From contig NC_045142.1 of assembly GCF_008831285.2 (NCBI RefSeq), forward strand, positions 12,476,716 to 12,540,715: a DNA stretch of 64,000 nt, read 5' to 3'. The position numbers and the translations under genes are program-made. This document shows, piece after piece, positions 1 to 64,000 of the stretch. This DNA is from Nymphaea colorata (lineage: Eukaryota; Streptophyta; Magnoliopsida; Nymphaeales; Nymphaeaceae). The notes under the pieces are model-generated. The model saw nothing but the letters and a program-made list of their open reading frames with translations, was not told the DNA's origin and did no database searches. Within the stretch, counting starts at the first letter, position 1. The number at the start of each line of letters is the position of its first letter.

Positions 1-3000
1 CCTTGCAGCGAAAGCCATTAGCAATCATAAGTAAAACACACAACGGGAATCACCAAAGGTAAATATCAGACTGAAGTCCGTACCATGAACTATTATAAAT
101 TTGGCTGCCATCGCATACTGGAGGATCATTTGAAACTCTCTTTGCATAACAATTACTCGAAATGGGTTTCTGATATATTACAACCCCAATGCCAGACGAC
201 TTGTCAAACTTATTTGCTACAATCTTCCAGCACATTGAAGTTGTCAAAGTTACCATGGCTGCATAAGCTTATTGTCAGAAGCTTAGATTGTGAAGGAAAC
301 ATCTATGACAGCTGTGTAATGGTCAGTACTATGCATCTACTTGCACTTTCTAAAAAGAATTCACATGTAACATGTGCATCAAGGAAGGTGTAAGACTTTT
401 CATGAATTACAGGTAGTTAACTGATAATCAATCTGGTGGTCTTTGGTTTGGTGGCGTAAGGCATGGTGGAAGCCCGAACCCTTGAGACTTTCACATTGGT
501 ACTTTTAACGAAGGAACATTTGCCAAATGAGTATGAATTATGAAATCAACTCACTATACTAGATATGCTGTACCCTATGATTTCAAACAAGTAACTAGTC
601 AGATAAATTTCCTAGCCGAACCAGTAGCTGGTTAGGGGACTAATCATTGACATTCCAGTCGCCAGGAACTAGTCAACATCTAGTCATTGACCAATTAGAG
701 ATTTTTAGTGCCTATCATACTTTATCAATCCTTTTGCCCTTATTGAACTGTATATTTTGTGCTTTTGTCTATTAGTATCACCCTATGTCACACGGATACC
801 GCAGACTGGGTCGAGTACCGGTGTCGACACGCGGACACGGGGATCCCGACACGGCGATACGGCTGGATACGTTTTGGATCGGGTCTGGGTCAGACCCGAT
901 CCAAACCACTTGTATAACCGATTTTTTAACCTGCGTTTTGTTTTACGCACTGACATTTACCCTCGACGCTCGACCTTCGTTTACCCTCGACGGCTTCCGC
1001 AGCAGGCTGGCAGCACAGTAAGGCAATGGCGGGCGACGGCGACCTCCGGCGATCGACGGCGACCTCCGGCGATCGACGGCGACTTCCGGTGGCGTCCGGC
1101 GGCAGCCAGCGACAGACAGGTAAGTGTTTTGTCTATTATTTTCGATAATAGAAGTTAGGGTTTCAACTTTTATTTGGGGATTTTTTAGATTGGGTATTAA
1201 AATCTGATTTGAGGATGTTTTGGTTTGAAGATTGGACGGTTTAGAATCCTATTCTTCAATGCTATGTGCGATGTTTTCTTTTTTTTGTTTGATTTTGGGA
1301 TTTGGGGATTTTGCCGTTTTGGGTGTATAACCGATTTGGGGATTTTGCCTTCGCTGTTGTTCATGATGTTAGACAATGATGAATACGTGATATCTAGATG
1401 GCATTAACATATAATTTACCATTCTTGAATGTTCTTGTTCACTGTTCACTATTCACTTCAGCCTTCGCTATTGTTCATGTTTCTTTTAGTTTTAGGCTTT
1501 AACGAACTGCTTCTGTTCCTGTTCACTATTCAGGCTGGCAGTACTATCATTTACCAATTACCATTCTTGAATGTTCCTGTCACTATTCAGCCTTCGTTCT
1601 GCTTCTGAATCTCTGAAGTTTTGTGACTGCAGTGCATGTTTATACTTTGTCAGTTTGTTGTATTGTTTTATTTCATAAATTTTATGTTCATTATACGTTT
1701 TTTCCATTTTTTTATTATGTTTAATCTAGTATGGCGAGCAAAGGAAAAACAGTGTCTCAGTCTCAACCTACAAGTTCTGGTTCTGGATCAGCTACACCCC
1801 AGCCACCATTATGGTCATACGTGAATCTAATGGGGAAACCTCCTGGAGGCGGTGGAAATGCTTTTTTTAGGTGTAATTTTTGTGAGGGACAGTTCAATGG
1901 ATCATATACAAGAGTGAAAGCACATCTATTAAAAATCAGTCAAAAAGGAATTCAACCATGTAAGAAAATCACTAACGAGACTTTGGCTCAGTTGAAGAAA
2001 GAACAAAAAGCCTTTGAGAATAAGAAAAGCATATCATCTGGATCTGGTTTCATTGACATTGCTTCAATTTTACATGATGATATTCAGAATCCTACCAAAA
2101 AAAGAAAAGTGGTTGATGTTCATCAGAAATCAATTAAGGATTCATTTAGTTTACAAGGACGGCGAGAATTAGAACTAAAAGTGGCGACATTTTTCTATGC
2201 TAATTGCATACCATTTAATGTAGCTAGAAGTCCATATTGGAGAGACTTAGTTACATCTATTGCAAATTCTAACTTGACTGGGTATGTTCCCCCTAGTTCT
2301 GAAAGGCTTCGCACTGTACTACTAGAACAACAGATGACTCGAGTGAACAAATTGTTAGAGTCTCAAAAGTTCACTTGGGATCAACACGGAGTTTCTATTG
2401 TTTCTGATGGCTGGACAGATTTGCAACGACGCCCTCTTATTAATTTCATTGCAACTTCAGCAAATGGACCAATTTTCTTGAAAGCAATAGATGCATCTGG
2501 TGAATACAAAAGTGCTGAGTATCTGAAAGGATTGTTTATGGAAATAATTGAAGAAGTGGGGAAAGATAACGTTGTTCAGCTAATTACAGACAATGCACCT
2601 GTATGTAGAGCAGCTGGTATTGCGATAGAAAAGGAGTACCCTCATATCTTTTGGACTTCTTGTACAGTTCATAGCTTAAATTTGGCTCTAAAGAGTATAT
2701 GCAATCCACCAAGTAAAGAGCAAGATCCTCATGCTTATGAATTATGTTCGTGGATTGAAGACTTGGAAAAGGATGTGAGGAACATCAGAAATTTCATAGT
2801 AAATCATCAACATGCACTTTCCAGTTATAACAAGCATTCTGATCTAAAATTATTAAGAGTTGCAGAGACACGTTTTGCATCTCTAATTGTTATGGTCAAA
2901 AGGATAAAAAGGGTGAAAAGTGCATTGATCAGTATGGTGACTGATGATGATTGGAGTTTCTACCGTGCTGATGATGATGACAAAGCTCAAGCAATCAAAG

Positions 3001-4281
3001 GAATGATTCTTGAAGACAAGTGGTGGGATGAAATCTTTTATTTTCTTGCATTCACAGAGCCGATCTGGGAGATGTTAAGAGTTCTTGATTGTGATAATTC
3101 AACGTTGCACTGTGTGTATGAGATGTGGGACACTATGATTGAAAAAATCCAAGAGGTTATTTTTAAGCATGAAAAAAAAAGTATTGCACTTGAAGATTCA
3201 GCATTTTTTGATCATGTGCATAGAATATTGATTGCAAGATGGGATAAAAGTAGCAATCCTCTTCAATGCATGGCACATACATTAAATCCTAAATATTATG
3301 GAAAAAAGTGGCTTACAGAGGGTGTTGGAAGAACCCCACCACATCTGGATCTAGAATTATCAACAAACAGAGTAGCATGTATTAATAGAATTTTCATTGA
3401 TGTACATCAAAATCGCGGAGCTAATGATGAGTTTGAAAGGTTTTCTACTGGAATTGGAGAAGATGTAGGTGCAACTTTAGACAAAGATAATTATCCATCT
3501 TTATCTTGGTGGATTAAACATGGAACTGCTTATCCTACTCTTCAATACCTTGCTTTCAGATTGTTAGTTCAACCTGCTACATCTTCATGCTGTGAGAGAA
3601 ATTGGAGTACATATTCACAAATCCACACTATAAAACGAAATAATCTCACAAGCAAACGTGCAGAAAATCTGGTTTATGTGCATTCTAAACTTCGGCTTCT
3701 ATCACGGAACAAAGAAGAATATAGGTAAATTAAGTATATGATTTATTGATTTAGATGTCTCTCTTCTTATTCGCTAACATCATAATAATTACAATTTTTT
3801 TGTCTTGTAGGGAAGGAGAAACTAAATATTGGGACGTGAATGTTGAGGACTTTAACTTAGAACAAGAGAATGAACTTGAAGTTGTTAATTCAAGATTCGA
3901 AGAACCTTGTATTCCCTCAACATCTTCTATTGTGGAAGAAGAGGAGATTGGGGAGAACGATGATTTGGGCATTGATGATGACTAGAATGATGATGAACAA
4001 TGTTTTGTGATGATTGATGAACAATGTTCTGTAACTTTCTTTGAGACTTTCTTGCTTATGTCTTAGCAGTTATCACTTTTGAGATTGGTGATGAACAATG
4101 TTTTGTTTGAGACTTTCTTTATTATCATTTTTAATTTTTTTGAATATAATATTCGCCGTATCCGCGTATCCTAAAATTTTGAAAATGCCGTGTCCCCGTA
4201 CCCGTACCCGTGTCCATAGGATACCCGTACCCGTATCCGTGTGACATAGGTATCATCACACATTATAATATATATATATAT

Positions 4282-4327
<46 letters not shown>

Positions 4328-7300
4328 TTATTTATTTATTTATTTATTTCTTACATGATTTGTATATAATATATATGGATATATGCACATTAGAATCACA
4401 AATATTTTTTCTTGGAGTTTATGTGAGAGGGTTTTTTTCTTGTGTATTAACTGGAAAGTTTGTTTTTCTTGGGAGAACCTTGGAAACTCAAAAGTTAAAA
4501 AAATTATATAAGAAAAGTAATAGATAAAATTAAGAAACTATGATTTAACTATAATTTTATTTAAAGAATATTGATAAAAACTCAAAAGAGTTATATCAAA
4601 AGGAATTCGGAAAAGTTTAGAATATATTAAAATAATTTTTATGAAATACCTCAAAATAATATATTAATATGCAAAATTTATGTGATATCAATATATTTTC
4701 CCTTCTCTTTCTTCAAGCGTGTATATTGTTATACCTCACTGATTTTAATTTAGTCAACCAACTTGGACTCGCTAATACAAACTAAGTTATTTTAGTACCT
4801 TGACCAACTTGTCTCCAACTTTGATTTGACAAGTTACGCCACACCAATGCTATATAAAATGGAAACACAAAAAACTGATAATTTCAATTTAACCAAGATA
4901 GAAACTAAAGAGGTTGGAGTGGGTCCTGGTTCAAACGTAACCCACTTCACAGATTTTACGAAATTTCAGTTTTTGGCATTATGATCAAATGCAAGGCCAA
5001 CATCAATCTGAATATCAACTTTAATAAATTCAAACTATCCAATCACCCACATAAGGTATCCCCCTAGAAAAATAAGATACCATGTGCCATAGTTATGAAC
5101 TCTGCAATTGGCAGTTGGGAAGCAGAAGTACAAGTGAGGCCTTCAATAGTTTCAGGAAGCAAGTGGGAAATGAACTAGTAAGCAAGCCAAAAGCAACTCA
5201 CGAATCAAACTGGAACAAAAGGAAAGTAAAAAGAATCAAAAAGGAAATTTAGAAGGGAAAAAGTTGAACAGGAAGCATGATTTCAGTTTTAGGAAGCATG
5301 CCCCTCAAAAAATGAAAGCTTGGTTCCCTTCTCAGTGTAATAAAAACTCTTTTATATGACAACTGTGCTTCTTTTCTGAAATCATCCTTCACAAGTCCCT
5401 AGCTTCTCAGTTCTAAAGTGTGGGTCATGGGAAGCAGGTTTGCTAATCATATATCGTGGTTCCAACAGCTCTGTCATTCACTACTTGGAGTTCAATTGGA
5501 CAGAGATTGTACCCAACCAATCCATGCTTATCAAACAATGAATTTGTGGTAACTGAACCTATAAAAGCCATGCTGAAAAACTCAGTTCTTATAAGTGAAA
5601 CCCAAATAAATACAGTTCATCCAGTACACTGTAGTAATGCTTGGATCTAGAGCCTCACTTCAGTTCTAGATTGGTGACTTCGCCAGGTAGACTTTTCCAG
5701 TAAACTATGTCCACAATAATGGTACTCTTACAAATTTCCTTTTTCCGCTGTGTGGTCAATGTGCAGGCAAGAGGCACAGCAAAAAAATGAACATATATAC
5801 ACAAGAAAAGCAGGTAACACTGATATGAATCTCAAGATTTTCCATTTAATATGCTGTCGCAATCAGTGCCTTCTGCATATCGACAAAGAGAATTCCCATA
5901 GCAAGTGAGCAAACAACCACTGGAAGAAGCTTATCTTCCTGACAGAACAATAGACACAAAAAATAAAGGTTTGTTTACAGTTAAGTTACCATCACCTTTG
6001 ATAACCCAGCTCAAAAGTGACCTAAGTGACCTAAGTGACCCCTCTCACCAGAAAAAGAGAGAACCCGATCCAACTTCCTGTTAGCGTATGGGGATCGGGT
6101 CTGTTCAGACCCGATCCATTCTCCTTATATCCACACGCCTAAAGTTACTAGGCGGTGGCTCTCTTGTAATTTTTTATCTTTTTATGTACAAATCTGTTGT
6201 AACCTATTAGGGTTATTCTTTAATTAAAGATTAAGGAACGCAGGGCTGTGTTAAGCCGGCTGCTCCCTTTCCTCCATCGTCTTCTTTCATCCTCTCTTCT
6301 CAACATATCTGTTTTGCATACGGAGAGACGAGTACTTTGTGAAGATTCTTACATGGTATCAGAGCCAGGTTGCATCGTCCTCCGGTGAGTGATTTCAGTT
6401 TGATGTGATTAGCCCTAATCTGCCCTAAATTCTTTCTTTTCTGGCGTGATCATCCCTCTTTCCAGTTTCTGCCCTAAATCTTGCGTGATTTGCCCTAATT
6501 GATTTGCCCTAATCGTTGTGCCCTAATCTTCTCATCGTTTTGCCCTAATTTTTGTCGTTGCCCTAAATCAATTATGGATCAGCCGACCCCCTCTCTTCTA
6601 TCTTCCAGCTTTCTCTCCCAACTTATTTCACAAAAGCTGAATCATAGTAACTATTTGACTTGGAAACGTCAAATAGTCCCTTTTATCAAAAGTCATAGAC
6701 TCTACGGGCATATCGATGGGACCACTCCAGCACCTCCTATGTATATTGACCGTGAAGTGAAGAAAACCGTAGTGGGAGATCAAGCTGCTGGGGCTGCGGC
6801 TATGAGTGAAATCAGATTTGAATATGAAACCATTACTGAAAATAATCCTGAGTATGAAGCTTGGCTGGCTCACGACCAGTCTCTTGTTGCCTATATTACT
6901 TCTACTTTGTCAGAGGAAGTATTAGGAGGTATTGATGATGATTTAACAGCCCTAGAGTTGTGGTCTACCCTTGCCACCACGTATTCTCAAGTATCCGAAG
7001 CACGTTTTCTGCAGTTAAGAAGGCAATTTCAGGACATCAAGCGTGGGACGCGTACTGTTTTGGAATATTTAAATGAAATTAAAAGTGTAAGTGATCAACT
7101 TGCTGCCATTGGACATCCCGTCAGCGACAAGGACAAAGTGCAACAAGCCTTGAGTGGACTGGGAACAGATTTTGATATTTTTTGCACAGCCTTGGAAGTC
7201 CTACCTATTCTTCCATCTTTCGAAGATCTCAAGGCTAAGTTATTCCAACACGAAGCTAGTCGTGTTCAGCGACAGAATTTGATTCCTTCCAACAGTCACA

Positions 7301-10300
7301 ATGTACTGATCACAGGGACACATGCATTGCAAGGGAATCGCACTCGTACTTGGATTCCTCAGGCAGGAATGGGAAGAGGGATTCTCCCAACACCACAGGG
7401 CATGAATACTACATCTGCCACATCTAGAAGGGTTCCGACTTGTTTCTATTGCAACAAGAGGGGGCATGTAAAGTCAGAATGTTGGCACAACCCGCAGAAC
7501 AAAAATAATCAGATTAGACGTGAGAACAAGGCAGCAGCAGGGTCAGCTTCATCATCATCTGGATCTAATGTTTTTGGATGTGTGTGCTATGTGCATGTTG
7601 ATGTTTCCTTGCGAAACAAATTTCAAGATCGTGTTGTTTTATGTAGATTTATAGGGTATGCAGAAAATTACAAGGGTTATAGGTGTTACAATCCTAAAAC
7701 TGGGCGTGTACATATTTCACGGCATGTTGTATTTGATGAGAACAGGTTACAGGATCCCAAGGCTACTTCTGTGACACTCAAGGACAAAAATGAAGTTTAT
7801 GATACTTGGCTTCATGCTGAAATCTTAAGACAAGGGGCAGCAATGTTGACTGAGCAAAATGAGCAAGTTGTTAATGAGCCCGAGACATCTGTAAGTAGTT
7901 CCTTGAGCAGCACTACTTCCTTGGACAGCATGCCTTCATCTTCTCAGCCCAGTGAGCCACCTACGCATAATCGGTTCTCAGGCCTGGTGTATTCTAGGCG
8001 ATCAGTTCCTACTGCAGTTCCACGCCAATCACAACTCGTGCGACATCCTATTGATAGATGGGTGAGCTATAACAGTTTTTCTTTGGATTTTCAGCTGTTT
8101 ATGACAGAAGTCAGCAAAAAGGTGGAACCAACATCTTATCACAATGCGAGTAAGGAAAAATGTTGGGTTGAAGCTATGAATGAGGAAATGGCAGCCTTGC
8201 ATGAATGTCAGACTTGGCAGATTGTCCCTCGTCCAGCTGATAAGAATGTTGTGGGATCCAAATGGGTTTATAAACTGAAATATAAACCAGATGGTAGCAT
8301 TGATCGGTATAAAGCACGACTTGTGGCGCGCGGTTTCACTCAGCAATATGGGGAAGATTATGATGAAACATTCAGTCCAGTCATCAAGATGGGAACAATC
8401 CGTGTCATTATTTCTCTTGCAGTCTCGTATGGATGGCCTCTCTATCAGTTAGATGTCAAAAATGCATTTCTTCATGGAATTCTTAAGGAAGAGGTATACA
8501 TGGAGCAACCTCCCGGCTACACTACTCATGATTCTCAAAAATGGGTTTGCAAATTACACAAGTCTCTATATGGGTTGAAGCAAGCTTCTAGGTCATGGTT
8601 TGATCGTTTTTCTCATCACATACAACAAATTGGTTTTCTCCGAAGCTCTCTCGATCACTCTTTGTTTATCTATCGCACTGGAGAAGCTACCACCTGGTTA
8701 CTTATCTATGTTGATGATATTGTTATAACTGGGAATTCTTCTTCACATATATCTTATGTTAAAGGTATCTTGAAGCAAGAGTTCAAGATGAAGGATCTGG
8801 GAGAATTACGATATTTTTTGGGTGTTGAACTTGACAGGACAAATGATAGTTTGACTCTTACACAGCACAAGTATACCCTTGATGTTTTGGATAGGGCAGG
8901 TATGACTAATTGCAAACCCATCACTACCCCCAGTGTTCTGAATACTAAATTGACTGCATCTGATGGAACTGCTGCATATTCCAATCCCACATTCTATCGC
9001 AGCATTGTTGGTATGTTACAATACCTTACCTTTACTCGCCCAGACATAGTATATGCTGTAAATCAGATTTCTCAGTTCATGCATACACCCACTGAAGGAC
9101 ATATGGATGCTGCTAAGCGGATCCTACGGTATCTCAAAGCTACTCTTGGAGATGGACTAGTCTACACCAAATGTTCCAATGTTTCTCTTGGACATAGCAT
9201 ATATACATATACTGATGCCGACTGGGCAGGCGATCCCGATGACCGACGATCAGTTTCAGGTTTCTGTCTCTTTTTTGATTCTAACCTCATTTGTTGGAGC
9301 AGTAAGAAGCAGCGTGCTGTTGCACGATCTAGCACTGAGGCAGAATATAGAGCAATGGCTGCAGGGACGGCTGAAGCGTCATGGTTATGTCATTTACTTG
9401 GGGAGCTCAATCTTCCTATTGTTCGGTCATCATTACTATGTGACAATCAAAGTGCGATAAAAATTGCTTTCAATCCCATTTTGCATAATCGCACCAAACA
9501 TATAGAGATTGATCAACATTTCATTCGACAGAAGGTTGAAGAAGCCGAGATCTTGCCTACTTATATATCTACCAATGAACAGATAGCTGATCTTTTTACC
9601 AAAGGTCTCACAGGGCAACATTTTTGGGATTTGAAGAACAAGTTGTGCATGATCAAATCTCATGCACAACTTGAGGGGAGCTGTTAGCGTATGGGGATCG
9701 GGTCTGTTCAGACCCGATCCATTCTCCTTATATCCACACGCCTAAAGTTACTAGGCGGTGGCTCTCTTGTAATTTTTTATCTTTTTATGTACAAATCTGT
9801 TGTAACCTATTAGGGTTATTCTTTAATTAAAGATTAAGGAACGCAGGGCTGTGTTAAGCCGGCTGCTCCCTTTCCTCCATCGTCTTCTTTCATCCTCTCT
9901 TCTCAACATATCTGTTTTGCATACGGAGAGACGAGTACTTTGTGAAGATTCTTACACTTCCCAGTTCCATTCCATCTAGAATACTAGAAATATGGAACTA
10001 AGGCAGGCATGACCTGTTGTATCTCAAAGACTCAAACTTCTAGATACGGGATTATCCAATCCAGAAAGGGTGTCAACAGTAACATCGAGCAATATACAGA
10101 CCAACGTATACATTACATGATACCCAAACTTCTGGATACAGGAGTAGTCCCAGCCATTCCAATAATTGGAATGTTACAACCGCTTTTGAGGGCATGAATG
10201 ATGATGAGTGAAGTCATTTTAGGTTGCACTACACCATGGATAAGTTTACCATGGTAAAAAAATGAGACCTTTAGGGTTCTGAATTTCTCCACCTTTTAAC

Positions 10301-12722: not shown

Positions 12723-13775
12723 CTGTTATATAAGTAATTTTATTTGTCTATATTTTTACTTTTTATTTTTTATCAAGGCTACCTTAATCTCATAGAAGAT
12801 TCAAATTTTTATTAAATAAAATAGGAGAGAGAGAAAGAAGAGGGAAAGATAGGAGAATGAAAAAAAATGAAAAAAAAACAAGAGAAAAGAATAATGGGTG
12901 CGGTCAGCAGCACCCGATTCGGTTTGACCGAATCGGGTGCCATGTTGGGCCGCACCTGCAACCGAGTCAATGCGGGTGCACCACCATATTTGGTGCACCC
13001 ATGTGACTTAGGATTTACGACTTTATCCTCTCTAAAGTACAAATATATAGAGGAGCTGAAATGCTCCGGCCACCTAGAGCTCCATCCAATCACGGCCGGA
13101 ATATTTGGTGCACTTGTGTGACTTAGGATGCAATCTGTTTGTGAGAGGCCGGACTATTTCTCCATTCAAACAGAGACAGAGAAAATTATATATATATATA
13201 TATAACAGTGCCACAAAAATACGCATTTTTTTGAAAAGCGCAAAAAAAAAAGATAAATTAAATTACTGTTTAAAACTTAAAAAAAAACATTTTTTGAAAA
13301 AAGGGAAAAAAGGTGTTTTCAACGCGTTTTTTTCAATTTTTCATTTTTTATTTTTTTAATGCCAAACAATTTTTTTTCATTTTCTATTTTTATTTGTTGG
13401 AAATCTACTTATCTTTTGATGTTTGTGTTATTAGTTTTCACTTATTTTATTTTTTCTCCGTTTTTATTTTTTAAAATTTTTAAAAATTTACCATATTTTT
13501 TAGGTTTCTTCAAGCTCGGCCTATTATACCTGAGAAAAACCTCGCCGTTTAAAACTCTGAAACGTTATTTTTTCCTATGATATATATATTGAAATTTGTT
13601 GGTTACCTCTTTTGCCAAATGGATTTTTTTTCCATTGCTAAAACACCAAAAAACATTGTTAAATGCCATGAAAAACCGTGGTCAAACAAAACCATCGCTA
13701 ATGCACTATTTGTGATGGTTTAGGTGAGAAAATAAATAAAAATTCATCTGGCAGCTAGAGGTAGCCTGCAGATTT

Positions 13776-25634: not shown

Positions 25635-28600
25635 TTTTTGTTGCAATTGCAACTGGGTCCTGTACTGGTTTTCCTGTTCTCCCGACCTTTTCCTTGCTTT
25701 TCTTTGTTTCTTGTTTCTTCCGTTTGTCATTTCCTTTGAGATGGTTCGCGTCCTTTTAGCATTTAGGAGCCTATGAAATGGTGGGTGTATTTAGCAAATG
25801 CCATCTTTAATAAGGCCCTTATGCGTGACGTTAAGGGCGAACTAACGTGTGCACTCCACATGAATATATATATATGAATGTCCTATACTTTGCTTCTGCT
25901 ATTCTTATTTTTTGAGTTTCTTACCTTTTTATATCTTTTCTACTACTTATTTGTTATGCAAACTTACAAGGGAGGAAAATGTCTTACATCTTATTGTGGA
26001 GGAGAAAAACTTGTCCCAGGAGTTCTGTCCAAGGAAGTCTTATAATCTTGATCTATTAATGTCCGATGTGCTTAACTCAAAAATTAGCTAGATTTATTGG
26101 ACAGTGTCCGCTCTATTTTTTGGAGTAGACTCATGAGATCGTAACAATATGTTACTAATGTCCAACAGCCTTTTAAGGTCTGTTTTACAAAGCAAACTGT
26201 TACATAAATACAGCTCCAAAATTGGAGCAAATCCATGAAATACGTACCTTAAAAAGTAGTTTATGAATTTTACAAAAAAAAAAGGATAAATTCATAAACA
26301 AGCCTTTAGTGACACAAATAGATCACGCTCCTGTCATACATACAGTAGTGAGAAAACAACTTATCTTGAATCAGATCACCAAGAGTAACGCAGCTTGACA
26401 TCTAAGCTGGCCTGTCAAGCAATACTTCATGAGTTCAAGCCCATCTATAGCATTCAATACACCTTCATATTTAATTCCATTCTTGGGACATGCGAGCCTA
26501 AATTTATATGTGCAAACTATGTTAGATTTATTGATTATGCAATCATTGAATTATTATATGTTTCAATCCATTTTAAATAGATTTGATCTACAATTCAAGC
26601 ATATCCATCTAGCCCATGGAATGTATTCTCTATTACTATCAACAAACAACTGTCCTACATAATTATCAATTTTTCATACTATCGGATGGTTCTCCTATAC
26701 TTATGAACTACAAAGCATAATTTGGTTCCCTAGAGGAACTGATCCAACTAGATACCTAACAAACCGAAAATCACCATTACATGCTGCTAATTTCATGCTG
26801 GAAGATCATTCATATTAAATCTAAAATAAATCCCATTTTGGACAAGCAAAATTCATGCAATGCATAGAGGTTCAAGCTTTGCATCCCCAACTCCTAGGGT
26901 TTTTCTCCATGGAGGAGCCGATCCTAATCCTTCAAACTAGTGCTACTAAATAAATTCCAACTCTAAAATGTTATACTCAACATGAAATCAAGTTTAAAAA
27001 TGTTACTTTGAATCTTAAATTAAAATAGAGTGAATGAGAAGCCAAATGTTAGGAATCACCCAAAATGTCTTCCATGCCAATTAAGCCTTAGAACCTGTCA
27101 CCAACAGTAGAAATGTCTTCCCAGATCAGCAACAATGGAGAAAATACATGCCCAACAATTGGGGCATGGATAGGTGCCGGCAATAAAGGGGGAAGATTGA
27201 AAAAGATTTGATAGCCAAACAGAGAGGTGGCTAGGGTTGAGGGAACCGTGGCTCGGTAGACTGAGAAGGGCAACACATATACTGGATATCCCCCCACTAA
27301 ATGGTGGAGAATCTGAACTCCAATGGAAATTGAATATTTGCATGCTTAAAATTCAATAAATTCCTATAACATAGCTACGGACTAAGCTATTTCTTAAACC
27401 CTCAATAACTATCTGAAATTGCATGTGAATTATTGCTGCCACCCTAAGGTACTTCTGAAATTCTTTCTCATTTAGAATGATAGATTCCGGATTGCATGCT
27501 TGGATTTGGCCTAATCTGATCTTTAGTTAATTTCTAAACTCATTTGTGATGGATTGAGATATGGATTTCTCTATTGAATTGCTCTAGTGCACAGCAATCT
27601 CTCTGACTCAATTTAACTCTAGTAGTGATGCAGTTCAAGTCCAAGTCTTTTGATATCCACAACATTATAAACATGGATGAAATGTATAAAAGCATGGATT
27701 TAAAGCTTGAATGCATGTTATGTTGTGTTACTTATAAACTATCTACAAAAAAGGTCATGAACAGAGAACAAAATTTGGAATTTAAAGAAGTTTTTTGAAA
27801 GAAACCCTAATCCTAATCAGCAGCCAAGAATATTTCAAACTAAACATGCTTTAACATAAAAAACTATTCCATAAATTCATCAAGCAGCAAATTAGGCAAT
27901 TTAAATTAACAACAAAACCAGCAAAACCAAAATGTTTAACCAAAATTTAACATTAGTAGAAAGAAATCATGCTTAGTCAAATACAAGGGCAATGACATTT
28001 ACTAACGCACTATTTCCGTTAGTAAATGTCTCTTCTAATGCAGGGTTTGCATTGCATATAATCTTTAGTAACGCAACGTAGTGCGTTACTAATTCTTATA
28101 TTATTTTTTATTCATCCGTTTTTTCAATACAACCCACGGGGAAAGTCCCTTTTGGATACATCATCTCAATGCCTAAACAAAAAAAAAAAAACCAGAAGCA
28201 CAAAAAAAATGTGGCATAGCTGCATCAAGCTCCATATCTTGATCTTGAACTTGCTTCCTTAATTGTTGATAGAATGAGCTAATCCAAAACAGTGAAATGG
28301 TGAGACAGATGCATAAGTTTTCATCCAAAACAGTGAACTTGCTGCTCAAGTAACTGTATTCCAACTTCATCAAGATGTTGAACTCTCATATGAGCTCATC
28401 GAAGATAGTAGATGTTGCTAGTATGTATGGAGATAGAGGTGGCGCTTGATCCTCTTTCCGATTCCCTGGATAAAAAGAACAACATATTGATGTATAATCT
28501 ATAAAAAGAAGAATCAAATAGCCCTTTGACCAGTGCGATCCGTAGGAAAGTGGTTAATAAGCCTGGCCAGTTGGCACCAAACCATGACCATAACAGGCAA

Positions 28601-55596: not shown

Positions 55597-58500
55597 CTGC
55601 AATGTAGTTAAATAATATCAATCCATGAGAGAGGAAATGTATTTGAAGAATCGAAGAGTGGATGCTTTTGTACCTCGTCGTTACTTATCTCCACTGAACT
55701 GGTTCCCATTCGCCGAGAATAAAATTTATAGTAGTCATCGAAGACTCCTTGGCAAAGACGAGGAGCATGAAGCAACTTACGATGGATGGAAGCCGCAAAA
55801 ATAAGAAGCTGCTCCACCTGATGGAATGCATGGCAGAGGCGCACCAGGTCATTATTGATGAAATCGTCTCTATCATCCTCATGAAATGCTGCACAACGTA
55901 TAAACTATTTGAGTACAAGGAATCTGAGAAATCAAAGAAAAAATAATGAAGAGAAATAAAAAATGACAGGAAAAAAAATAGGAAAAGCCATTGAAATATG
56001 AAAAATACTGGAATACAAAGAAGTGAAGGTACCTTTTAGGGACTTCAACATAGAGGCTATTGTACGATAAAGTTGTTCAATTTTTATTTTCATCTGATTC
56101 ATCTGACCGAAAGAGGTTTGGTTCAGGATGTCAGCAGAGGCCCTAAACGCAGTACAAACCATTTGCTCCAGCAGCTGATGGGGTCGCAGTGTTTCCAGGT
56201 AGTGAAGAACCTGCAGCAGCAAGCTATTTTTACTAAGAATTGGAAACGTAGAGAGACCAAAAGTTGTCAGCCCAAAATGTACATAATATTCCTACTTAAG
56301 TGCATGCACATATGTCAAAGATATATCATAACAGACTTCTGAATAGAAAACCTGGAATTTGCAATGAAAAAAGCAGTCAACTACAGAAAGCAGAAGAGAC
56401 CTATACACATTAGTAGTAAAACCAAAAAAAAAAAACCGTTACTGGTAGAGGGGAAATATTTCTTAATTTGGAAAACGATAACCCACAAAACTCTCTAGAC
56501 AAGTTCACAAGAGTTACTGTTGACTCCAACTTATTTTGCTTTTTTTCCTAGTAGTTACTGCACTAATCTCCCTTACGTGTCATAAAACACGAACTCCCTA
56601 GTGATTATTTTTAGAGGCAGGTAAAGAAAAGTAGTTTGAATGAAAGCCTCTTTATAGCAATCATTTTCAGAATTTGATCAAGCCATTATTTTACCAAATG
56701 GGCCCATGAACTAGTGATGTTTGGGCTTGTGGTGCCACAACCTTAAACCATGTAGATCAAACATTGACACCCCATGTACCCATGGTCTCCCTTTAGTTCA
56801 CAGGTAAGCAAACTAAATCCGGAAGAGTCCTAGAGAGAGATTAATTGAACATTAGACAAAATAAATCCTCCTCAAGTTAGGAACTGCTCCCAAGGTATGT
56901 ATAAAATTTCAGTATATACCAAAAAAATTACATAACATTTATAACCTATGTGACCATCACTTTCTCAAAGGACCCAATAAGCACTCCACATTGTTAAGAT
57001 AGACGTGTTTTGGATCTGACCCAGATCCAAAACACGTGCCCTTTTAACACAACTTATTCATGGCATATGTTGTAAGTTTCTCATGTTGTCGTTGTGTTTT
57101 TTAGTCATTAGTGTGCTATTTCTTTGTTCTTAATATAAGTTTAAGGGCAAGAGACGTGCCCTAAGTTCTGTTGACTCTCCTCTTCCTTTCTGTTTTTCTG
57201 CATAATCAGAACTGAGGTGAAAGAAACGTCAATTATGTCATGAATGCTAGACGTTCCAGAAGAGGGAGGGGTCCTATTTTTGAAAAGGGAGTTCCAGAAT
57301 TTGAAAAAAGGTTCAACGTCAATTATGGAATATATAGGCCACATGAAAGGGATCACAGAATAGGGAGTGTCATTCCAGACAAAGATAAAGTGCAGCAACT
57401 ACTCATCAATGGTTTAGGCCCTGAGTTTGATATGCTCACTACGGTGTTGCAATGTCTTTCTAAATTGCCCTCTTTTGAAGAACTGCAGGCAAAGCTTCTC
57501 CAACATGAAAACAATATAAAACAAACGGCAGAAGAGAATGACGTTGTCAAATTGTCCCTCAGGCTTTAGGTGAGGGAGTGGCAAATGGAGGCAGAGGCCG
57601 TGGTCACCAACGCCCAACATATTGGGAGCAGATAGTATGGGAAATCAGAAAAGGGTACCTACTTGCTTTCACTGCAACAAACGGGGACATGTTAAGGCTG
57701 ATTGTTGGTTGAACCCTCAAAATAAGGCAAAAACAAATAAAACAGAAAACAAACCAGCCAGTCTTCAAGGTGTCAAAGGGTCGCCTGCAGAAGTATAACA
57801 AATTTTATTATCAGCTTTATCGAAAGTGCAAGAGCTCTTATTGTCAGCTTTATCGCAAATGACAACCAAACAAGGTGAACAGAAGGAATGGTATGTTGTC
57901 TCACTTACTTCCATATTCTGAAAGGGGTAGTATTGTTACAGGAGATGGAACCCACGACCGAATTACTCATGTTGGTCATGCCTACAATCCTATGTCAAAG
58001 TCTTCACTCTCTTTGTCCAATGTCCTTCTTGCTCAAAATATTAACAAGAATATTGTTTCTGTTGCTAAACTTGCTCATGGTATGCATTATGCTCTCAACT
58101 TCACTCACTCCTTTGTTTATGTTAAGGATCTTCAACCGAAGGAGACGTTCGTTGAGGGGGAGTGAAGAGGAAACATGTATGTCTTCAAGGAGACCTCATC
58201 AGTTTCTATTCTTCAGTTGGAGCCGTTTAAGCAGCCTTCTTCTGTGTCTTCATGTTCAGAACTTTTGCCCTGTAGCCCTCGTTTTTTGGCGTCTTCAGAT
58301 TCATCTCATTGTAATAAGCCAAATGTTTGGCACAGTCGTTAGGTCATTTTAGTTGGGGATTCATTGAGAAACGTGTCACGTGGTCTTGTTCCAAAATGTT
58401 GTTTAAAATTTCTTTTTGAGAATAAGTGTTCGAGTTGGGACCTATGCAAAAGTCACATTCTTCCTTTCCATGTCATTAATAAAAGGGCTTCCAAGCCATT

Positions 58501-61500
58501 TGAAATTATATACTCTGATGTTTGGGTGTCTGCTCCTGCTTCTTCTTTATTTGGGAGTCTGTACTATGTTATTTTCATTAATTCTTATTTTTGGTACACT
58601 TGGATATATTTCACAAAGCATAAGCATGAGGTCTTCCAGAATTTTTTGAGCTTTCTACTATTGTGAAGACCAAATTTTTCAATAATATTGTGCATTTGCA
58701 ATCTGATGGTGGCAGAGAGTTCTCATCGCATAACTTTATTTCCTTTATTCGGGATAATGGGGTCAAGAGACAAATTTCTTGTCTGTATACTCCACAACAA
58801 AATGGAGTTGCAAAGAGGAAGCATAGACATATTATAGAAAGCAGTATGAGCATGCTACATAATAGTCGTGTACCTTTGAATCTTTGGACAGAGGCTTTCC
58901 ATACTTCAGTTCATGCTATAAATCGGTTGCCTATTTCAATTTTGGATCATAAAATCCCTCATTATGCTTTATTTGGACACCATCCATCTTACGACAAATT
59001 ACATGTTTTTGGTTGTGCTTGTTATATGCATAATGGTTCGTAATTGAGGAACAAATTTCAAGATAAGGCTGTAAAATGCAAGTTTGTGGGATATGTTGAT
59101 GAGTATAAAGTAGGCCTGGGCATCGGGCTGGGCCCGGCCCGACCCGATTGGGCCCGGGCCGGGCCCGATAATCCGGCCCAGCAGCAGTCCCAGGCTGGGC
59201 CCGGGCCCAATAGGGCGGCCCGGCGGTGACCCACCAGGCCCGACTCCCTCTCCCTCTCTGCTCTCTCTCTCCTCCCTCTCCCTCTGGTTCCCTCTCGAGT
59301 CTCTGCACCCTCTCCCCCTCTGGTTCCCTCTCCCTCTCTGCTCCCGCTCCCCCTCGTTCCCTCTCCCGTCTCCCCTCTGGTTCCCTCTCCCGTCTCCCCC
59401 TCTGGTTCCCTCTCCTGTCTCCCCTCTCCCGCTCCCCTCTAGTTCCCTCTCCCGTCTCCCGTCTTCTCCGCTCCCGTCTCCCGTCTTCTCCGCTCCTGTC
59501 CCCCTCTCCCGTCTCCCCTCTCCCCGCTCCCCCTCTCCCCCGCTCCCTCCCCCTTCCTTTCTCCCTCTCCCTCTCCCGTCTCCCTCTCTCCCCCGCTCCC
59601 TCCCCCTCTCCCGTCTCCCTCTCTCCCCCGCTCCCTCCCCCTTCTTTTCTCCCTCCCCCTCTCCCGTCTCCCCCTCTCCCCCGCTCCCTCCCCCTTCCTT
59701 TCTCCCTCTCCCTCTCCCTCTCCCGTCTCGCCCTCTCCCCCTCTCACCTGCTCCCTCCCCCTTCCTTTCTGCCTCTCCGTCTCCCCCTCTGGTTCCCTCT
59801 CCCGCTCCCCTCTAGCTCCGTCTCCCCCTCTCCCGTCTTCTCCCGCTCCCCTCTGGCTCCGTCTCCCCCTCTCCCGTCTCCCGTCCCCCTCTTCTCCGCT
59901 CCCCCTCTCCCCTCTTCCCGTCTCTCTCCCCCTTCTCGCAAGCCAGCCCGGCCCGCCAAACGGGCCGGGCTGGGCCTGACTTTTGGGGGTTAGGCCCGGT
60001 ACCCGACCCGGCAATATTATTGGGCCGGGCCCGGGCTTAGGCCCGACGGGCCGATCCGGGCCGGGTTTTAGCAGGCCGGGGCGGCCCGGCCCGGCCCGAT
60101 GCCCACCCCTAGTATAAAGAATATAGATGCTATGATCCAGTTAGCATCAACACTTGCAATTTTGAAATGAGTGCATCTGAGTAGTTGTCTTCTATCAAAA
60201 CAGAATTGTATGACCTATGGATGAGTGTTGATCTTTTTGCTGGTATAGGAGATGAATGTCTGAAGGCTCGTGATGACTTCAATGATGACATGGATCAGGG
60301 CGACAACCAATCAAGTGCATCATCACACCAAATAGAACGTTTCTCTGGACAGGTATACATTAGAAGAGGCAGGATACAAGACAGGCAAACACAAAGACTA
60401 CAACTAGTGATTCTACTCAGAGGTCAGTGCGGGTCAAACACCCTATAAAACGTTGGATGAGTTTGATACTTTTTCCTTTGATTTCAGCTATTCATGTCTC
60501 AACTCATAAAGTAGAATGAGCCTACTTGTTTTAATCAAACTGCTCAATCCTACTATTTGATTGAGGTTATGAATGATGAAATAGAAGCTCTTCATGAGTG
60601 TGACACTTGGGAAGTAGTCCCCTGCCCAAAAGGAAAGAATGTTGTTGGATCTAAATGGGTTTATAAAATAAAGTATAAACCTGATGGCACTATTGATAGA
60701 TATAAGGCTCGTCTTTGGGCTCGTGGATCACACAATAGTAAGGTGAAGACTATGATGAAACCTTCAGCCCAATGATGAAGATGGCTACCATTCAAGTGAG
60801 CATAGCTTTGACAGTCGATCAGAGATGGAAACTTAGCCAAATGGATGTTAAAAATGCATTCTTACATGGATATTTAAAGAAGGAAGTCTATACGGAACAC
60901 CCATAGGATATGCTGAAAATGATCTTAAAACCTGGGTATGCAAACTAAAAAAGTCTTTGTATGGATTAAAACAGGCATGCCGTTATTGGTTTGAAAGTTT
61001 TGCCTTACAAGTTCAGACATATGGTTTTAGAAGGTGCACTCTAGATCATTCCCTTTTCATTTATCAGGAGACAAATGCTATTACTATTCTTCTTATATAT
61101 GTGGATGATGTAGTGATCACTGGGAGTTCTGATGACCATGTGCATAAAGTTAAACAATTCTTAATGAATATTTTCAAAATGAAGGATCTAGACTTCTTGA
61201 GGTATTTCCTTGGTGTGGAAGTTGACAGACAAGGAGATACATTGACTCTTATACAACAAAAATACACTCTAGACCTCCTAGAAAAAACAAGAATGTCAAA
61301 TTATAAACCGGTTAGCACCCCGAGCATATTACATCAGAGGTTGAGTTCTGAAGATGGAGAGCTTTGTACGGATCCTACAAGATATCAAAGTATAGTAGGC
61401 TTGTTGTAGAGCCACTAGACCTGATATTGTTCATGCTGTCAATCAAGTCTCTCAGTTTATGCATGCTCCAATAGAGGGGCATATGGAGGCTGTGAAGCAT

Positions 61501-63288
61501 ATTTTGTGCTATTTAAAGGGAACCATAGGCGACGGATTGATACATCGGAAGAGTCAATGTTTAGATCAGGACCATGAACTCCTCACCTATATAGATGCGG
61601 ATTGAGCTGGAGATCCAGATGAGAGACAATCTGTATCTGGGTATTGTATTTTTCATTGGAACAATTTGATCTCTTGGAGTAGTAGAAAGCAAAAGGCAAT
61701 TGCACGGTCAAGCACAAAGGCATAGTATAGATCAATGGCAGCAGGGGCAGTAGAAGTAACATGGATTAGGCATCTATTGTGTGACTTAGGAGAAGCTATA
61801 GCACGGTCTATACTCCTATGTGACAGCCAAACTGCGATAAATGTTGCTTTTAATCCTATTCAACACAGAAGAACAAAATACATTGACATTGATCAGCATT
61901 TTGTTCGTCAAAAGGTTGAACTACAAGAGATAGAACTTCGCCATGTGAAGACGGAAGATCAAACAGCAGACTTGTTCACAAAAGGACCGACAGGGCAAGA
62001 ATTCTGGTTATTGAAAGCAAATTGTACATGCTCAAAGACCATGTACAACTTGAGGGAGGGTGTAAAGTTAGACATGTTTTGGATCTGGGTTGTGCCCTTT
62101 TAACACAACTTATTAATGCATATGTTGTAATTTTCTCATTTTGTTATTGTGTTTTTTAGTCATTAGTGTGTTATTTCTTTGTTCTCAATGTAAGTTTAAG
62201 GGCAAAAGATGTGCCCTAACTTATGTTGCTCTTCTCTCGTGCACTCTCCTCTTCCTTTCTCTGTTTTTCTGCATAATCAGAACAGTGGTGAAAGAAACAT
62301 CTAGCTCATACCAAGATTCTTACACACATAACTCTAACCCCATTATGAACCTATACTATTTGTTTAAGTTCATTTGAACTCATACAGAGACCTGAACAGG
62401 GTCTCTTAAAGTTTTGAATTATTTGTATCCTTGTTAGTCAAAAGTTATAGGAGAGCCTACATGGTGGCGATCCACAAAGGCCTAGTTGGTGCCTAGACGA
62501 GAAACCAGGCAGCATCTAGGAAGACCAAAAACAATATATGAAAGTGAAAAGATGAAAAGGAAGAAGAAGAAGAAGAACATCAACAACAACAATAACAAAA
62601 AAATAAAAAATAAAAAATAAAAGAAAAAATGAAAAAAATGTAAAAGTAGTAGAAGAAAAAACTGAAACATCTTATTTGACTTGGGTGCCTACAGCCGAGG
62701 AGCACATTGGAGTATTGAGATTTTTATCAAGGACATGGAATATCAATAAATTAGTTTCAAATTCTTTCTTATTTCTGCAACAAATTCAAGTCAGACTACC
62801 AGAAATGAATATAACATATGGTCATACGGTTGCAAATTAACTAGCTGCAAACACATTCCAAGAATGCATGAGATGACACTAGAAAGATAAAAAAGAGAAG
62901 CAATTGATAAAAAAAAAGCCTCACAATGACAATGGCAAGAACAGAAATTCAAATTCATGAAGGATAAAATTTGAGGAGACAATAATGCACAATATAATAT
63001 TTGCATAATTTTGTACCTTTTCTCCCTCTCGGTTTGGATCTAAAATTGGCTTTTGTTCTAAGGCAGCCAAGGCATGTACCTCGTTCCACATTTGACGCCA
63101 GGAATTTCCATATTCAGACATTCGTTCTGAAAGTTTACCCTTTGGAGGCCATTCGGATCTTGGACTTCCATCAAATTTTTCAGAACCAGCAGCATCATTG
63201 ATTTCACTTTCCCAATCACCTGGAGAATGCCATCTAATAAAATCTTCAAATACTGCATCTGGGTTTGCTGCTTTAAAGGCAGACATGT
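55300..63288 (-). CDS. RAB3GAP1: Rab3 GTPase-activating protein catalytic subunit, 3' part (four exons)
   Basis: Rab3GAP catalytic-subunit family: in animals the RAB3GAP1/2 complex inactivates Rab3 and activates Rab18; the plant role is little studied. Four exons join in phase on the minus strand: 63288-63017, 56210-56033, 55888-55674 and 55596-55300. They encode MSAFKAANPDAVFEDFIRWH, WPPKGKLSERMSEYGNSWRQ, then GEK/VLHYLETLRPHQLLEQMV, AFRASADILNQ, EDDRDDFINNDLVRLCHAFH, VEQLLIFAASIHRKLLHAPR and a C-terminal NDLQVALSVTSCD. MSAFKAANP, EDFIRWHSP and HYLETLRPHQLL are family hallmarks. The N-terminal exons lie beyond the right side. The 6.8-kb intron between the first two exons holds a Copia element, inserted antisense, with clean splice sites either side. 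No coding lesion is seen. Confidence 0.9.
55674..55888 (-). CDS. RAB3GAP1: Rab3GAP exon (FHEDDRDDFINNDLVRLCHAF block)
   Basis: Acceptor TGCAG at 55890/55889 and donor GAG|GTAC at 55674/55673. It encodes FHEDDRDDFINNDLVRLCHA through SSVEISNDE in phase with both neighbours. Confidence 0.9.
56033..56210 (-). CDS. RAB3GAP1: Rab3GAP exon (HYLETLRPHQLLEQM block)
   Basis: Acceptor TGCAG at 56212/56211 and donor G|GTACC at 56033/56032. The exon continues GEK with VLHYLETLRPHQLLEQMVCT and ends LYRTIASMLKSLK plus one base. Confidence 0.9.
56211..56986 (-). other. RAB3GAP1: Rab3GAP intron, part left of the Copia element
   Basis: Non-coding AT-rich sequence. No exon or repeat of note except poly-A runs near 56428. 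Confidence 0.6.
56992..57226 (+). repeat. Truncated 5' LTR of the older Copia element
   Basis: It starts TGTTAAGATAGACGTG and aligns with the 3' LTR up to GGTGAAAGAAAC, then breaks. It contains a perfect palindrome with 16-bp arms (57003-57037). Confidence 0.88.
57240..59110 (+). pseudogene. Older Copia element: gag, CCHC knuckle, protease region and integrase, broken
   Basis: gag begins mid-domain: DKDKVQQLLINGLGPEFDML and LPSFEELQAKLLQHE, followed after a stop by CFHCNKRGHVKADCW (about 57664). The protease/linker region (57870-58150) has GSIVTGDGTHDRITHVGHA and SLSLSNVLLAQNINKNIVSV. Integrase shows IIYSDVWV (about 58507), LQSDGGREFSSHNFISFI (about 58700) and TPQQNGVAKRKHRHIIESSM. The residue after GVA, normally the catalytic Glu of the DDE triad, is Lys. 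LRNKFQDKAVKCKFVGY follows a stop at 59041. Multiple stops make it inactive. Confidence 0.9.
59111..60111. mobile_element. 1-kb non-autonomous hAT element with C/T minisatellite core
   Basis: Perfect 8-bp target duplication GTATAAAG (59103-59110 and 60112-60119) splits the Copia codons for DEYK/EYRC. Ends TAGGCCTGGGCATCGGGC and, complemented, TAGGGGTGGGCATCGGGC form TIRs. Subterminal 100-160 bp on each side are packed with GGCCCGGGCC runs, and 59240-59945 is an almost pure C/T tract of CTCTCCC-type units (GGTTCCCTCTCC, CCGTCTCCCCCTCT). The 255-aa Ser/Pro/Leu ORF across it is a repeat artefact. It is younger than the Copia element it interrupts. Confidence 0.92.
59240..59945. repeat. ~700-bp pyrimidine-rich minisatellite
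   Basis: One strand is over 90 percent C/T by eye, made of short variable units around CCCTCTCCCGTCTCC. Such strand asymmetry can adopt triplex-type structures in vitro in general. Confidence 0.9.
60113..62060 (+). pseudogene. Older Copia element: RT and RNase H, broken
   Basis: After the nested hAT element the frame resumes with EYRCYDPVSINTCNFEMSAS. RT gives EVMNDEIEALHECDTWEVVP, SKWVYKIKYKPDGTIDRYKA (then a frameshift near 60740), SLYGLKQACRYWFESFALQV and LLIYVDDVVITGSSDDHVH (about 61090). RNase H shows YIDAD followed by a stop in place of Trp, AGDPDERQSVSGYC, ARSSTKA plus a stop, ILLCDSQTAINVAFNPIQHR and VKTEDQTADLFTKGPTGQEF. At least five lesions are visible. Confidence 0.92.
62061..62324 (+). 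repeat. 3' LTR of the older Copia element
   Basis: 264 bp, TGTAAAGTTAG...GATTCTTACA. Its end (CAAGATTCTTACA) closely resembles the LTR end of the young Copia element. The palindrome found in the 5' LTR is reduced to one arm here. Confidence 0.92.
62330..63016 (-). other. RAB3GAP1: Rab3GAP intron, part right of the Copia element
   Basis: Non-coding. It includes an AAG/AAC/AAT-type trinucleotide and A-rich low-complexity stretch at about 62550-62640. Confidence 0.6.
63017..63288 (-). CDS. RAB3GAP1: Rab3GAP exon (MSAFKAANP block)
   Basis: Acceptor TAG at 63290/63289 and donor AAG|GTAC at 63017/63016. The exon starts with two bases of a codon, then encodes MSAFKAANPDAVFEDFIRWH through LDPNREGEK. 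Confidence 0.9.
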
Positions 63289-63524: not shown

Positions 63525-64000
63525 CTTTGTCACATGGGTACTGCTGTAAAGGCAGCGTACCTGTACCAGTCAGGTATGATACCAGTACTGGTACTGGTAC
63601 TATCCCAGGTACTTCTTAGGTACTGGTCAAACAGTACCGGATACGGTCAACGTACCCAAGACCGTATCCATCCGATTTAGAACTCGGTCAAAGTTGTAAC
63701 GCTTTTTGTTTTGGGGCAGGTCGATCTGGATCGGGTCTAGACACGAACCCGATCTCCACGCGCAAGAGGAAGCCCGACATTACCCCCCTTCTCCCTCGTT
63801 TCCCCTCTTCGTCTCCTCTTCTGCTACGACCGCATCTCAGGAGAAACGAGGAGGCTGGAGGCGTGGCAGCGGCGACATTTGGGCCAACGGAGAAAGGACG
63901 ACGGCGGCGGTGGCACTGGTAAGCCCTCTTGACCTCTCGCTGCCTCGTCCTTCTTCCTCCTTCCTTCTTCCCCTTCTCCCTCTTTCTACCCGCACGTTCC
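63525..64000 (+). mobile_element. Left end of another hAT element, cut by the window edge
   Basis: It begins CTTTGTCACATGGGTACTG, similar to the ends of the hAT element at 783. The subterminal part has repeated GGTACTG/CAGTACC and GTATC motifs (63570-63665). A partial palindrome on GGATCGGGT follows at 63728-63755, then a GC-rich leader-like region ending in a donor ACTG|GTAAGC at 63918/63919. This copies the layout of 783-1120 (TIR, subterminal repeats, palindrome, GC-rich untranslated exon, donor), so a transposase gene probably lies just beyond. It sits in an intron or 5' part of the Rab3GAP gene. Confidence 0.65.

What the first reader, a model, noticed from the sequence alone, without database searches (positions are those of the whole stretch)
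873..905. The same perfect palindrome occurs in hAT transposons and in Copia LTRs
At 873-905 the hAT element has 15-bp perfect arms containing GGATCGGGTCTG around a 3-bp spacer. Both LTRs of the young Copia (6092-6117, 9695-9720) carry the same 12-bp arms around a different 2-bp spacer. A second hAT-like element has GCACCCGATTCGG arms (12910-12940), the right-edge hAT has a GGATCGGGT partial palindrome (63728-63755), and the older Copia has a 16-bp-arm palindrome containing GGATCTG (57003-57037). DNA transposons and retrotransposons share no ancestry here, so the motif may be a common host-factor site captured repeatedly, a recombination-prone module, or convergence. All lie near an element end or inside U3.
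Basis: partly seen in the sequence, partly recalled or inferred. Interest (0 to 1): 0.72.

Follow-up and report, generated by a model that had tools for sequence, protein, structure and literature searches.

The report
One palindrome shared by unrelated transposons
In this plant-like genome an exact DNA palindrome recurs near the ends of both cut-and-paste (hAT) and copy-and-paste (Copia) transposons, far beyond chance, which suggests that unrelated mobile elements share or trade the same control site.

Summary
The 873-905 hAT palindrome (15-bp arms) and the Copia LTR palindrome (same 12-bp arms) are exact. Genome-wide, GGATCGGGTCTG(N2-5)CAGACCCGATCC has 334 sites; the reversed palindrome of the same composition has 0. 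The half-site has 1290 matches against 30 for its control. All 20 stretches fetched around perfect copies (of 334) hold hAT or Copia sequence at the palindrome. Of 38 stretches around half-sites outside perfect palindromes, 31 fall in hAT or Copia families, 2 in an unidentified repeat, 5 unclassified. Thirty of 40 hAT copies found without using the palindrome keep it perfect. The older Copia's palindrome equals the hAT one minus a GGGTC/GACCC unit per arm (1 of 5000 shuffles as similar). Likeness between this hAT and the young Copia stops at the palindrome. The 12910 palindrome is a different word; 63728 is a decayed relative. Best reading: a promoter-proximal regulatory palindrome exchanged between a hAT family and Copia U3 regions and then kept. 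The sharing is shown; function, route and direction are inferred. Closest known: palindromic repeats of Sirevirus LTRs and BED-bound subterminal quasi-palindromes of hAT Hermes.

The parts
783..4249 (+). hAT element (called hAT1 here)
   Evidence: TIR CTATGTCACACGG at both ends, flanks GTATCACC/GTATCATC (7 of 8), transposase ORF 1728-3728 with DUF659 and Dimer_Tnp_hAT
873..905 (.). hAT1 palindrome TTTGGATCGGGTCTG-GGT-CAGACCCGATCCAAA, about 90 bp inside the 5' end
   Evidence: kept perfect in its 12-bp arms in 30 of 40 copies
6079..9956 (+). young Copia (CopiaY) with identical 275-bp LTRs 6079-6353 and 9682-9956
   Evidence: RVT_2, Retrotran_gag_2 and SH3_retrovirus domains
6092..6117 (.). palindrome GGATCGGGTCTG-TT-CAGACCCGATCC at LTR bases 14-39, 5' LTR
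9695..9720 (.). same palindrome, 3' LTR
57003..57037 (.). older Copia (CopiaO) 5' LTR palindrome, 16-bp arms, starting at LTR base 12 (LTR starts 56992); the hAT1 palindrome without one GGGTC/GACCC unit per arm
62077..62090 (.). remnant in the CopiaO 3' LTR: one arm and loop only (TTTTGGATCTGGGT)
   Evidence: read
63728..63755 (.). decayed palindrome of a second hAT-like element at the right edge (TIR-like CTTTGTCACATGG near 63525)
   Evidence: relatives L028 and L036 align to 63695-63876 at 79-83% and have a better palindrome there; no transposase seen for this element

Best explanation
The palindrome is a discrete cis-regulatory module of transposon promoters: an inverted repeat of a GGATC-GGGTC half-site (two GGRTC pentamers) lying between the element's end and its transcribed part in hAT1, and within the first 40 bases of U3 in CopiaY and CopiaO. 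I infer that one host DNA-binding factor, most simply a dimer, reads it, and that the module was passed between a hAT1-like element and Copia LTRs and then kept and varied. Shown: sequence identity, genome-wide excess, position, transposon context of the copies read, retention in most hAT1 copies, and hAT1 containing both window Copia forms. Inferred: factor binding, promoter function, and the route and direction of transfer.
For: 334 sites against 0 for the reversed palindrome; half-site 1290 against 30. All 20 fetched stretches around perfect sites hold hAT1 or Copia LTR sequence; 31 of 38 other half-site stretches are in hAT or Copia families. hAT1 arm plus loop against CopiaO: 1 of 5000 shuffles as good; against CopiaY: 4 of 5000. 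30 of 40 hAT1 copies chosen by flank keep perfect arms; cores vary 1.7% and 0.8% against 2.1% upstream and 5.2% downstream. Copia U3 starts not chosen for the motif carry 13 GGRTC/GAYCC words in 10 LTR starts against 1.5 to 2.8 expected. L044 shows a natural joint of a Copia LTR start with a hAT1 copy that carries its palindrome.
Against: Flanks of hAT1 and Copia are no more alike than permuted ones, so a long exchanged promoter piece is not seen. TATA-like words near the palindrome are not above shuffles. Half-site spacing differs between families, which does not fit a rigid dimer. Five of the 10 Copia U3 starts have no such word. hAT1 copies are young, so the retention test is weak. Several CopiaY relatives carry unpaired changes in one arm (L048, L054, L056, L063, L068). 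In L044 the hAT copy lacks its first 60 or so bases, so it may be a deletion joint, not an insertion. No expression, footprint or binding data.
Confidence: 0.45

Rival explanations
1. Convergence: unrelated transposons each evolved inverted GGRTC pairs because one host factor prefers them; no DNA was exchanged.
For: Only the palindrome is shared between hAT1 and CopiaY, not the flanks. GGRTC words are also present singly or in other order at the U3 start of further Copias (L005, L007, L019), and F3 and the right-edge hAT use variant half-sites.
Against: hAT1 and CopiaO also share outer TTTT and the loop, which a GGRTC-reading factor need not require.
Confidence: 0.3
2. Self-maintaining hairpin: the palindrome has no regulatory role; it persists because quasi-palindromes are corrected to perfect ones and loops flip by template switching or cruciform resolution.
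For: CopiaO relative L117 has the loop inverted and a paired change in the outer arms against the window copy; arms of 16 bp are perfect in an old LTR; arm loss in L115, L108 and the CopiaO 3' LTR fits hairpin instability.
Against: Does not explain why one word is shared by hAT and Copia. In 40 hAT1 copies all changes seen are on one side only, none paired.
Confidence: 0.13
3. hAT transposase site: the palindrome is bound by the BED finger of hAT transposases, as the subterminal quasi-palindrome of Hermes is, and Copia LTRs exploit hAT-derived proteins.
For: Position about 90 bp inside the 5' end; short non-autonomous copies (396 to 1146 bp) keep the first 136 to 165 or more bases including it. 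Hermes BED domains bind such a site (PMC10368747, passages).
Against: The short copies were found through the palindrome, so retention is biased. No counterpart was seen at the 3' end. The BED match in this transposase is below Pfam's cut-off (11.8 against 20.6 bits).
Confidence: 0.07
4. RNA hairpin next to the polypurine tract: in Copia it folds in the RNA just downstream of the tract and helps priming; the hAT likeness is secondary.
For: A second hairpin lies just upstream of the tract (9639-9673); 9630-9730 folds at -48.6 kcal/mol against -25.2 for shuffles. Inverted repeats around this junction are reported in Copia (PMC2829016, sections 8 and 9 read).
Against: hAT elements have no polypurine tract. 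The CopiaO 3' end folds no better than expected (z -1.27).
Confidence: 0.04
5. Chance.
For: Short AT-rich palindromes are common in the window.
Confidence: 0.01

Closest known systems
Palindromic repeated motifs (RMs) of Sirevirus (Copia) LTRs, Bousios et al. 2010, PMC2829016 (passages and sections 8 and 9 read)
   Same: Palindromes with dyad symmetry in plant Copia LTRs, proposed by the authors as regulatory; several elements share nearly identical words (for example CGGTCTGACCG in Osr10).
   Different: There 8 to 32 copies per element, mostly starting 200-400 bp into the LTR, with a CGG-CCG signature; the authors found it in Sireviruses and not in other Copia. Here one copy at the U3 start with a GGATC-GGGTC half-site, and the same word in hAT elements.
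[quoted passage not shown]
   Different: There one arm is upstream of the tract and the other about 18-28 bp inside the LTR, with the tract in the loop; here both arms lie inside the LTR.
Hermes hAT left-end quasi-palindrome STR1-STR2 bound by BED domains, Lannes et al. 2023, PMC10368747 (passages read)
   Same: Palindromic site in the subterminal part of one hAT end.
   Different: AAGT/AAGC core within the first 27 bp; here GGATCGGGTCTG about 90 bp in; binding untested.
Tnt1 U3 enhancer boxes, a palindromic BI box (recalled, not read)
   Same: Palindromic activator site in a plant Copia U3.
   Different: No hAT counterpart known to me.

Membership tests
Sirevirus-type palindromic repeated motif | CGG-CCG signature forming the core | tested here: inconclusive
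   The arms contain CGGGTC...GACCCG, so CGG and CCG occur, but spaced differently from the published words
Sirevirus-type palindromic repeated motif | At least eight copies per element | tested here: not met
   The window's CopiaY LTR holds one copy
Inverted repeat round the PPT/3' LTR junction | Left arm borders the PPT, right arm inside the LTR | tested here: not met
   Both arms lie inside the LTR
hAT subterminal transposase-binding palindrome | Palindrome near a hAT end | tested here: met
   873-905 in an element with TIRs and target duplication
hAT subterminal transposase-binding palindrome | Binding by the transposase BED domain | not testable with these tools
   BED match of the transposase only at E 0.25, below cut-off
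Host transcription-factor site | Protein binding or effect on transcription | not testable with these tools
   No binding or expression data at hand
Host transcription-factor site | Retained more than neutral flanks | tested here: inconclusive
   1.7% and 0.8% against 2.1% and 5.2% in 40 young hAT1 copies

The most novel reading that the evidence does not exclude
A cross-class regulatory module: a hAT promoter palindrome was captured by Copia U3 regions (or the reverse), so that class I and class II transposons of one plant are switched by the same host or hAT-derived factor and rise and fall together.
Probability: 0.3. Interest if true: 0.78.

Novelty: new variant of a known kind. Interest (0 to 1): 0.55.

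Why it matters
Palindromic control boxes inside one retrotransposon lineage are known, but transposon classes with no shared ancestry are usually treated as regulated one by one. A single word used by hAT and several Copia families in hundreds of copies would make joint activation and joint silencing of unrelated transposons directly testable, and would suggest that small promoter modules move between transposons.

Tried and rejected
Chance: rejected. A longer exchanged promoter piece between hAT1 and CopiaY: the exact 12-nt match CTTTTATAATCC between L006 and L024 looked promising, but in family-level tests 92 to 239 of 500 permutations were as good downstream and 166 to 417 upstream (6 of 15 hAT copies and 8 of 12 Copia copies used). 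A TATA box at a fixed distance: not above shuffles. Flank likeness in other pairs: of 20 comparisons (at most four copies a family) one stood out, hAT1 against the long-LTR Copia F3 downstream (0 of 400), with 11 and 9 of 400 in the other orientation and 29 of 400 for CopiaY against CopiaO upstream; left as a lead. 12910 as a member: weak. Conservation in CopiaY: not measurable, since the 40 best of 288 candidates are 98-100% identical. Literature: seven text searches (listings seen) showed me no report of this palindrome; the library lacks most subscription papers and only two papers were opened.

Not done: the patterns TTTTGGATCN{5,25}GATCCAAAA and GGATCTGN{2,6}CAGATCC and a search with the hAT1 5' end (784-868) were asked repeatedly and never answered; 5 of 9 new CopiaO relatives were not read; the loop-specific GGT pattern was asked once and not repeated.

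Full report
What is there. The window lies in a 408-Mb genome of 783 contigs, plant-like by its genes (inference). The hAT element (hAT1) spans 783-4249: TIR CTATGTCACACGG, flanks GTATCACC/GTATCATC, transposase with DUF659 and Dimer_Tnp_hAT. Its palindrome 873-905 has 15-bp perfect arms. The young Copia (CopiaY) has two identical 275-bp LTRs, 6079-6353 and 9682-9956, with duplication CTTCC; each holds the same 12-bp arms around TT at LTR bases 14-39. The older Copia (CopiaO) has a 16-bp-arm palindrome from base 12 of its 5' LTR (57003-57037); its 3' LTR keeps one arm only.

Chance. Six palindromes with arm >=10, spacer <=5 and G+C >=25% stand against a mean of 0.41 in 100 Markov-3 simulations. 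Five of the six lie in hAT or Copia sequence or, for 59943-59973, in a GC-rich element nested in CopiaO; 12910-12940 lies in a stretch that I did not identify. Genome-wide the exact pattern GGATCGGGTCTGN{2,5}CAGACCCGATCC has 334 sites; the same pattern reversed, also a palindrome of the same composition, has 0. The 12-nt half-site has 668 + 622 matches against 14 + 16 for its control. The pattern has no exact match in the prokaryote genome contigs (84,980 species) or in IMG/VR.

Where it occurs. Of the 334 sites 50 were listed; by loop 14 are GGT/ACC, 33 TT/AA, 2 GA/TC and 1 ATT (counted). I fetched 20 stretches around listed sites: 14 with a GGT and 1 with an ATT loop, all with hAT1 sequence at the palindrome; 4 with a TT and 1 with a GA loop, all Copia LTRs; L014, fetched for its GGT loop, also holds a Copia one. 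Of 8 hAT1 copies with both ends recognised, 6 have perfect 8-bp duplications (L005, L008, L010, L013, L014, L019), L011 and L015 do not. Among the half-sites listed, 41 are outside perfect palindromes; I fetched 38 stretches with 39 of them, all on contig 1; two, each abutting a perfect palindrome, were left out. Twelve stretches belong to the hAT1 family (L051 only by 75% identity to L071), 8 to CopiaY relatives, 9 to a long-LTR Copia (F3), 2 to a further Copia (L064, L065), 2 to an unidentified repeat rich in GGATC (L041, L050), and 5 are unclassified. By proportion, the control gives about 2.4 chance half-sites for that part of contig 1.

Variants. Two further patterns gave 13 sites (11 F3, 2 like the right-edge element) and 1 site (not read). 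F3 is filed as Copia because gag (PF14223) follows about 1 kb downstream in L025 and L030 (a third protein sent, from L034, had no Pfam match). F3 has GGATCGGGTCC-AACC-GGACCC-GACCC-GATCC and a second palindrome near it. L028 and L036 align to window 63695-63876 at 79-83% and show that 63728-63755 is a decayed form of GATCGGGTC...GACCCGATC; that this element is a hAT rests on the TIR-like word near 63525 only. A further Copia in L016 has ACCGGGTCCA-TTTC-TGGACCCGGT at about LTR base 24.

hAT1 against CopiaO. The reverse complement of 57003-57037 contains GTTTTGGATC-TGGGTCA-GATCCAAAAC. The hAT1 copy L011 reads GTTTTGGATC-GGGTC-TGGGTCA-GACCC-GATCCAAAAC. They agree apart from one five-base unit per arm. 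Arm plus loop aligns as well in 1 of 5000 shuffles; for CopiaY 4 of 5000; seven other palindromes gave 185 to 4999 of 5000 (the pairs were chosen after seeing them). hAT1 thus contains the CopiaY arms and the CopiaO outer arms and loop, which fits a hAT1-like form as the older one (inference). Of nine new CopiaO relatives four could be read: L117 has the loop inverted and a paired change in the outer arms, L115 has lost an arm, L116 and L118 are rearranged.

Conservation. Forty hAT1 copies were found with the 225 bases downstream of the palindrome (the best 40 of 127 candidates). Thirty of 40 have perfect 12-bp arms; the mean departure from the majority base is 1.7% (left core) and 0.8% (right core), 2.1% upstream, 5.2% downstream; L108 has lost the left arm; the other nine imperfect copies have changes on one side only. 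These copies are young, so the test has little power.

Copia U3 starts. From 21 rows of Copia RNase H ends I kept 10 in loci not fetched for that Copia; dropped were 3 window rows, 7 rows fetched for a Copia palindrome or half-site, and 1 duplicate. Their first 60 bp of LTR (45 in L044) carry 13 GGRTC/GAYCC words against 1.5 at window density (Poisson 8e-9) and 2.8 at the density just upstream. Five of 10 have at least one, five none; paired and overlapping words are not independent, so this probability overstates. In L044 a Copia LTR start (about 40 bp) is joined to a hAT1 copy that begins near its base 64 and carries the palindrome; the hAT tip is missing, so it is a natural joint of the two, by deletion or otherwise.

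Against a longer shared piece. Flanks of 20, 30 and 45 nt on either side were no more alike between hAT1 and Copia than after column permutation. TATA-like words were not above shuffles. In hAT1 the palindrome is followed by a GC-rich stretch ending in a donor-like CAG-GTAAGT near 1120 and then the transposase (read), which is why I place it in the promoter; this is inference.

Mechanism. I take a host factor reading inverted GGRTC pairs beside the promoter as the most likely reason for retention, and exchange of the module between hAT1 and Copia U3 as the most likely reason for the sharing. Convergence is the main rival for CopiaY, hairpin self-correction for CopiaO. Binding, effect on transcription and direction are untested.

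Known relatives. Bousios et al. 2010 (PMC2829016; passages and sections 8 and 9) describe palindromic repeated motifs in Sirevirus LTRs and inverted repeats round the PPT/3' LTR junction. Lannes et al. 2023 (PMC10368747; passages) show Hermes BED domains on a quasi-palindromic subterminal site. Seven text searches (listings) showed me no report of this palindrome or of such sharing between hAT and Copia. The mending of L044 and of the half-site count did not change the scores, except that the best explanation now stands at 0.45.

Noticed in passing
6571-9687: The CopiaY ORF is open for 1038 codons but jumps from the zinc-knuckle to the SH3-like/RT part; other copies have LTR palindromes about 4.8 kb apart against 3.6 kb here, so this copy has lost about 1.2 kb with protease and integrase core although its LTRs are identical.
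   Followed up: partly
9639-9673: Strong hairpin just upstream of the CopiaY polypurine tract; the older Copia has a matching hairpin with a paired base change at the same place.
   Followed up: partly
59111-60111: GC-rich, low-complexity element with TAGG(CC/GG)TGGGCA ends and 8-bp duplication GTATAAAG, nested in the older Copia; hAT-like, carries palindrome 59943-59973.
   Followed up: no
6063-6071: ACCCGATCC, part of the palindrome word, also lies a few bases outside the young Copia's insertion site.
   Followed up: no
L044:227-349: Start of a Copia LTR joined to a hAT1 copy without its tip, which puts the hAT palindrome about 90 bp into the Copia U3.
   Followed up: partly
27994-28092: Two neighbouring palindromes (GACATTTACTAACG..., TTAGTAACGCA...) that look like parts of a small inverted-repeat element.
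   Followed up: no
12880-13130: Unidentified stretch with palindrome GCACCCGATTCGG-TTTGA-CCGAATCGGGTGC region and repeated TTTGGTGCAC words.
   Followed up: no
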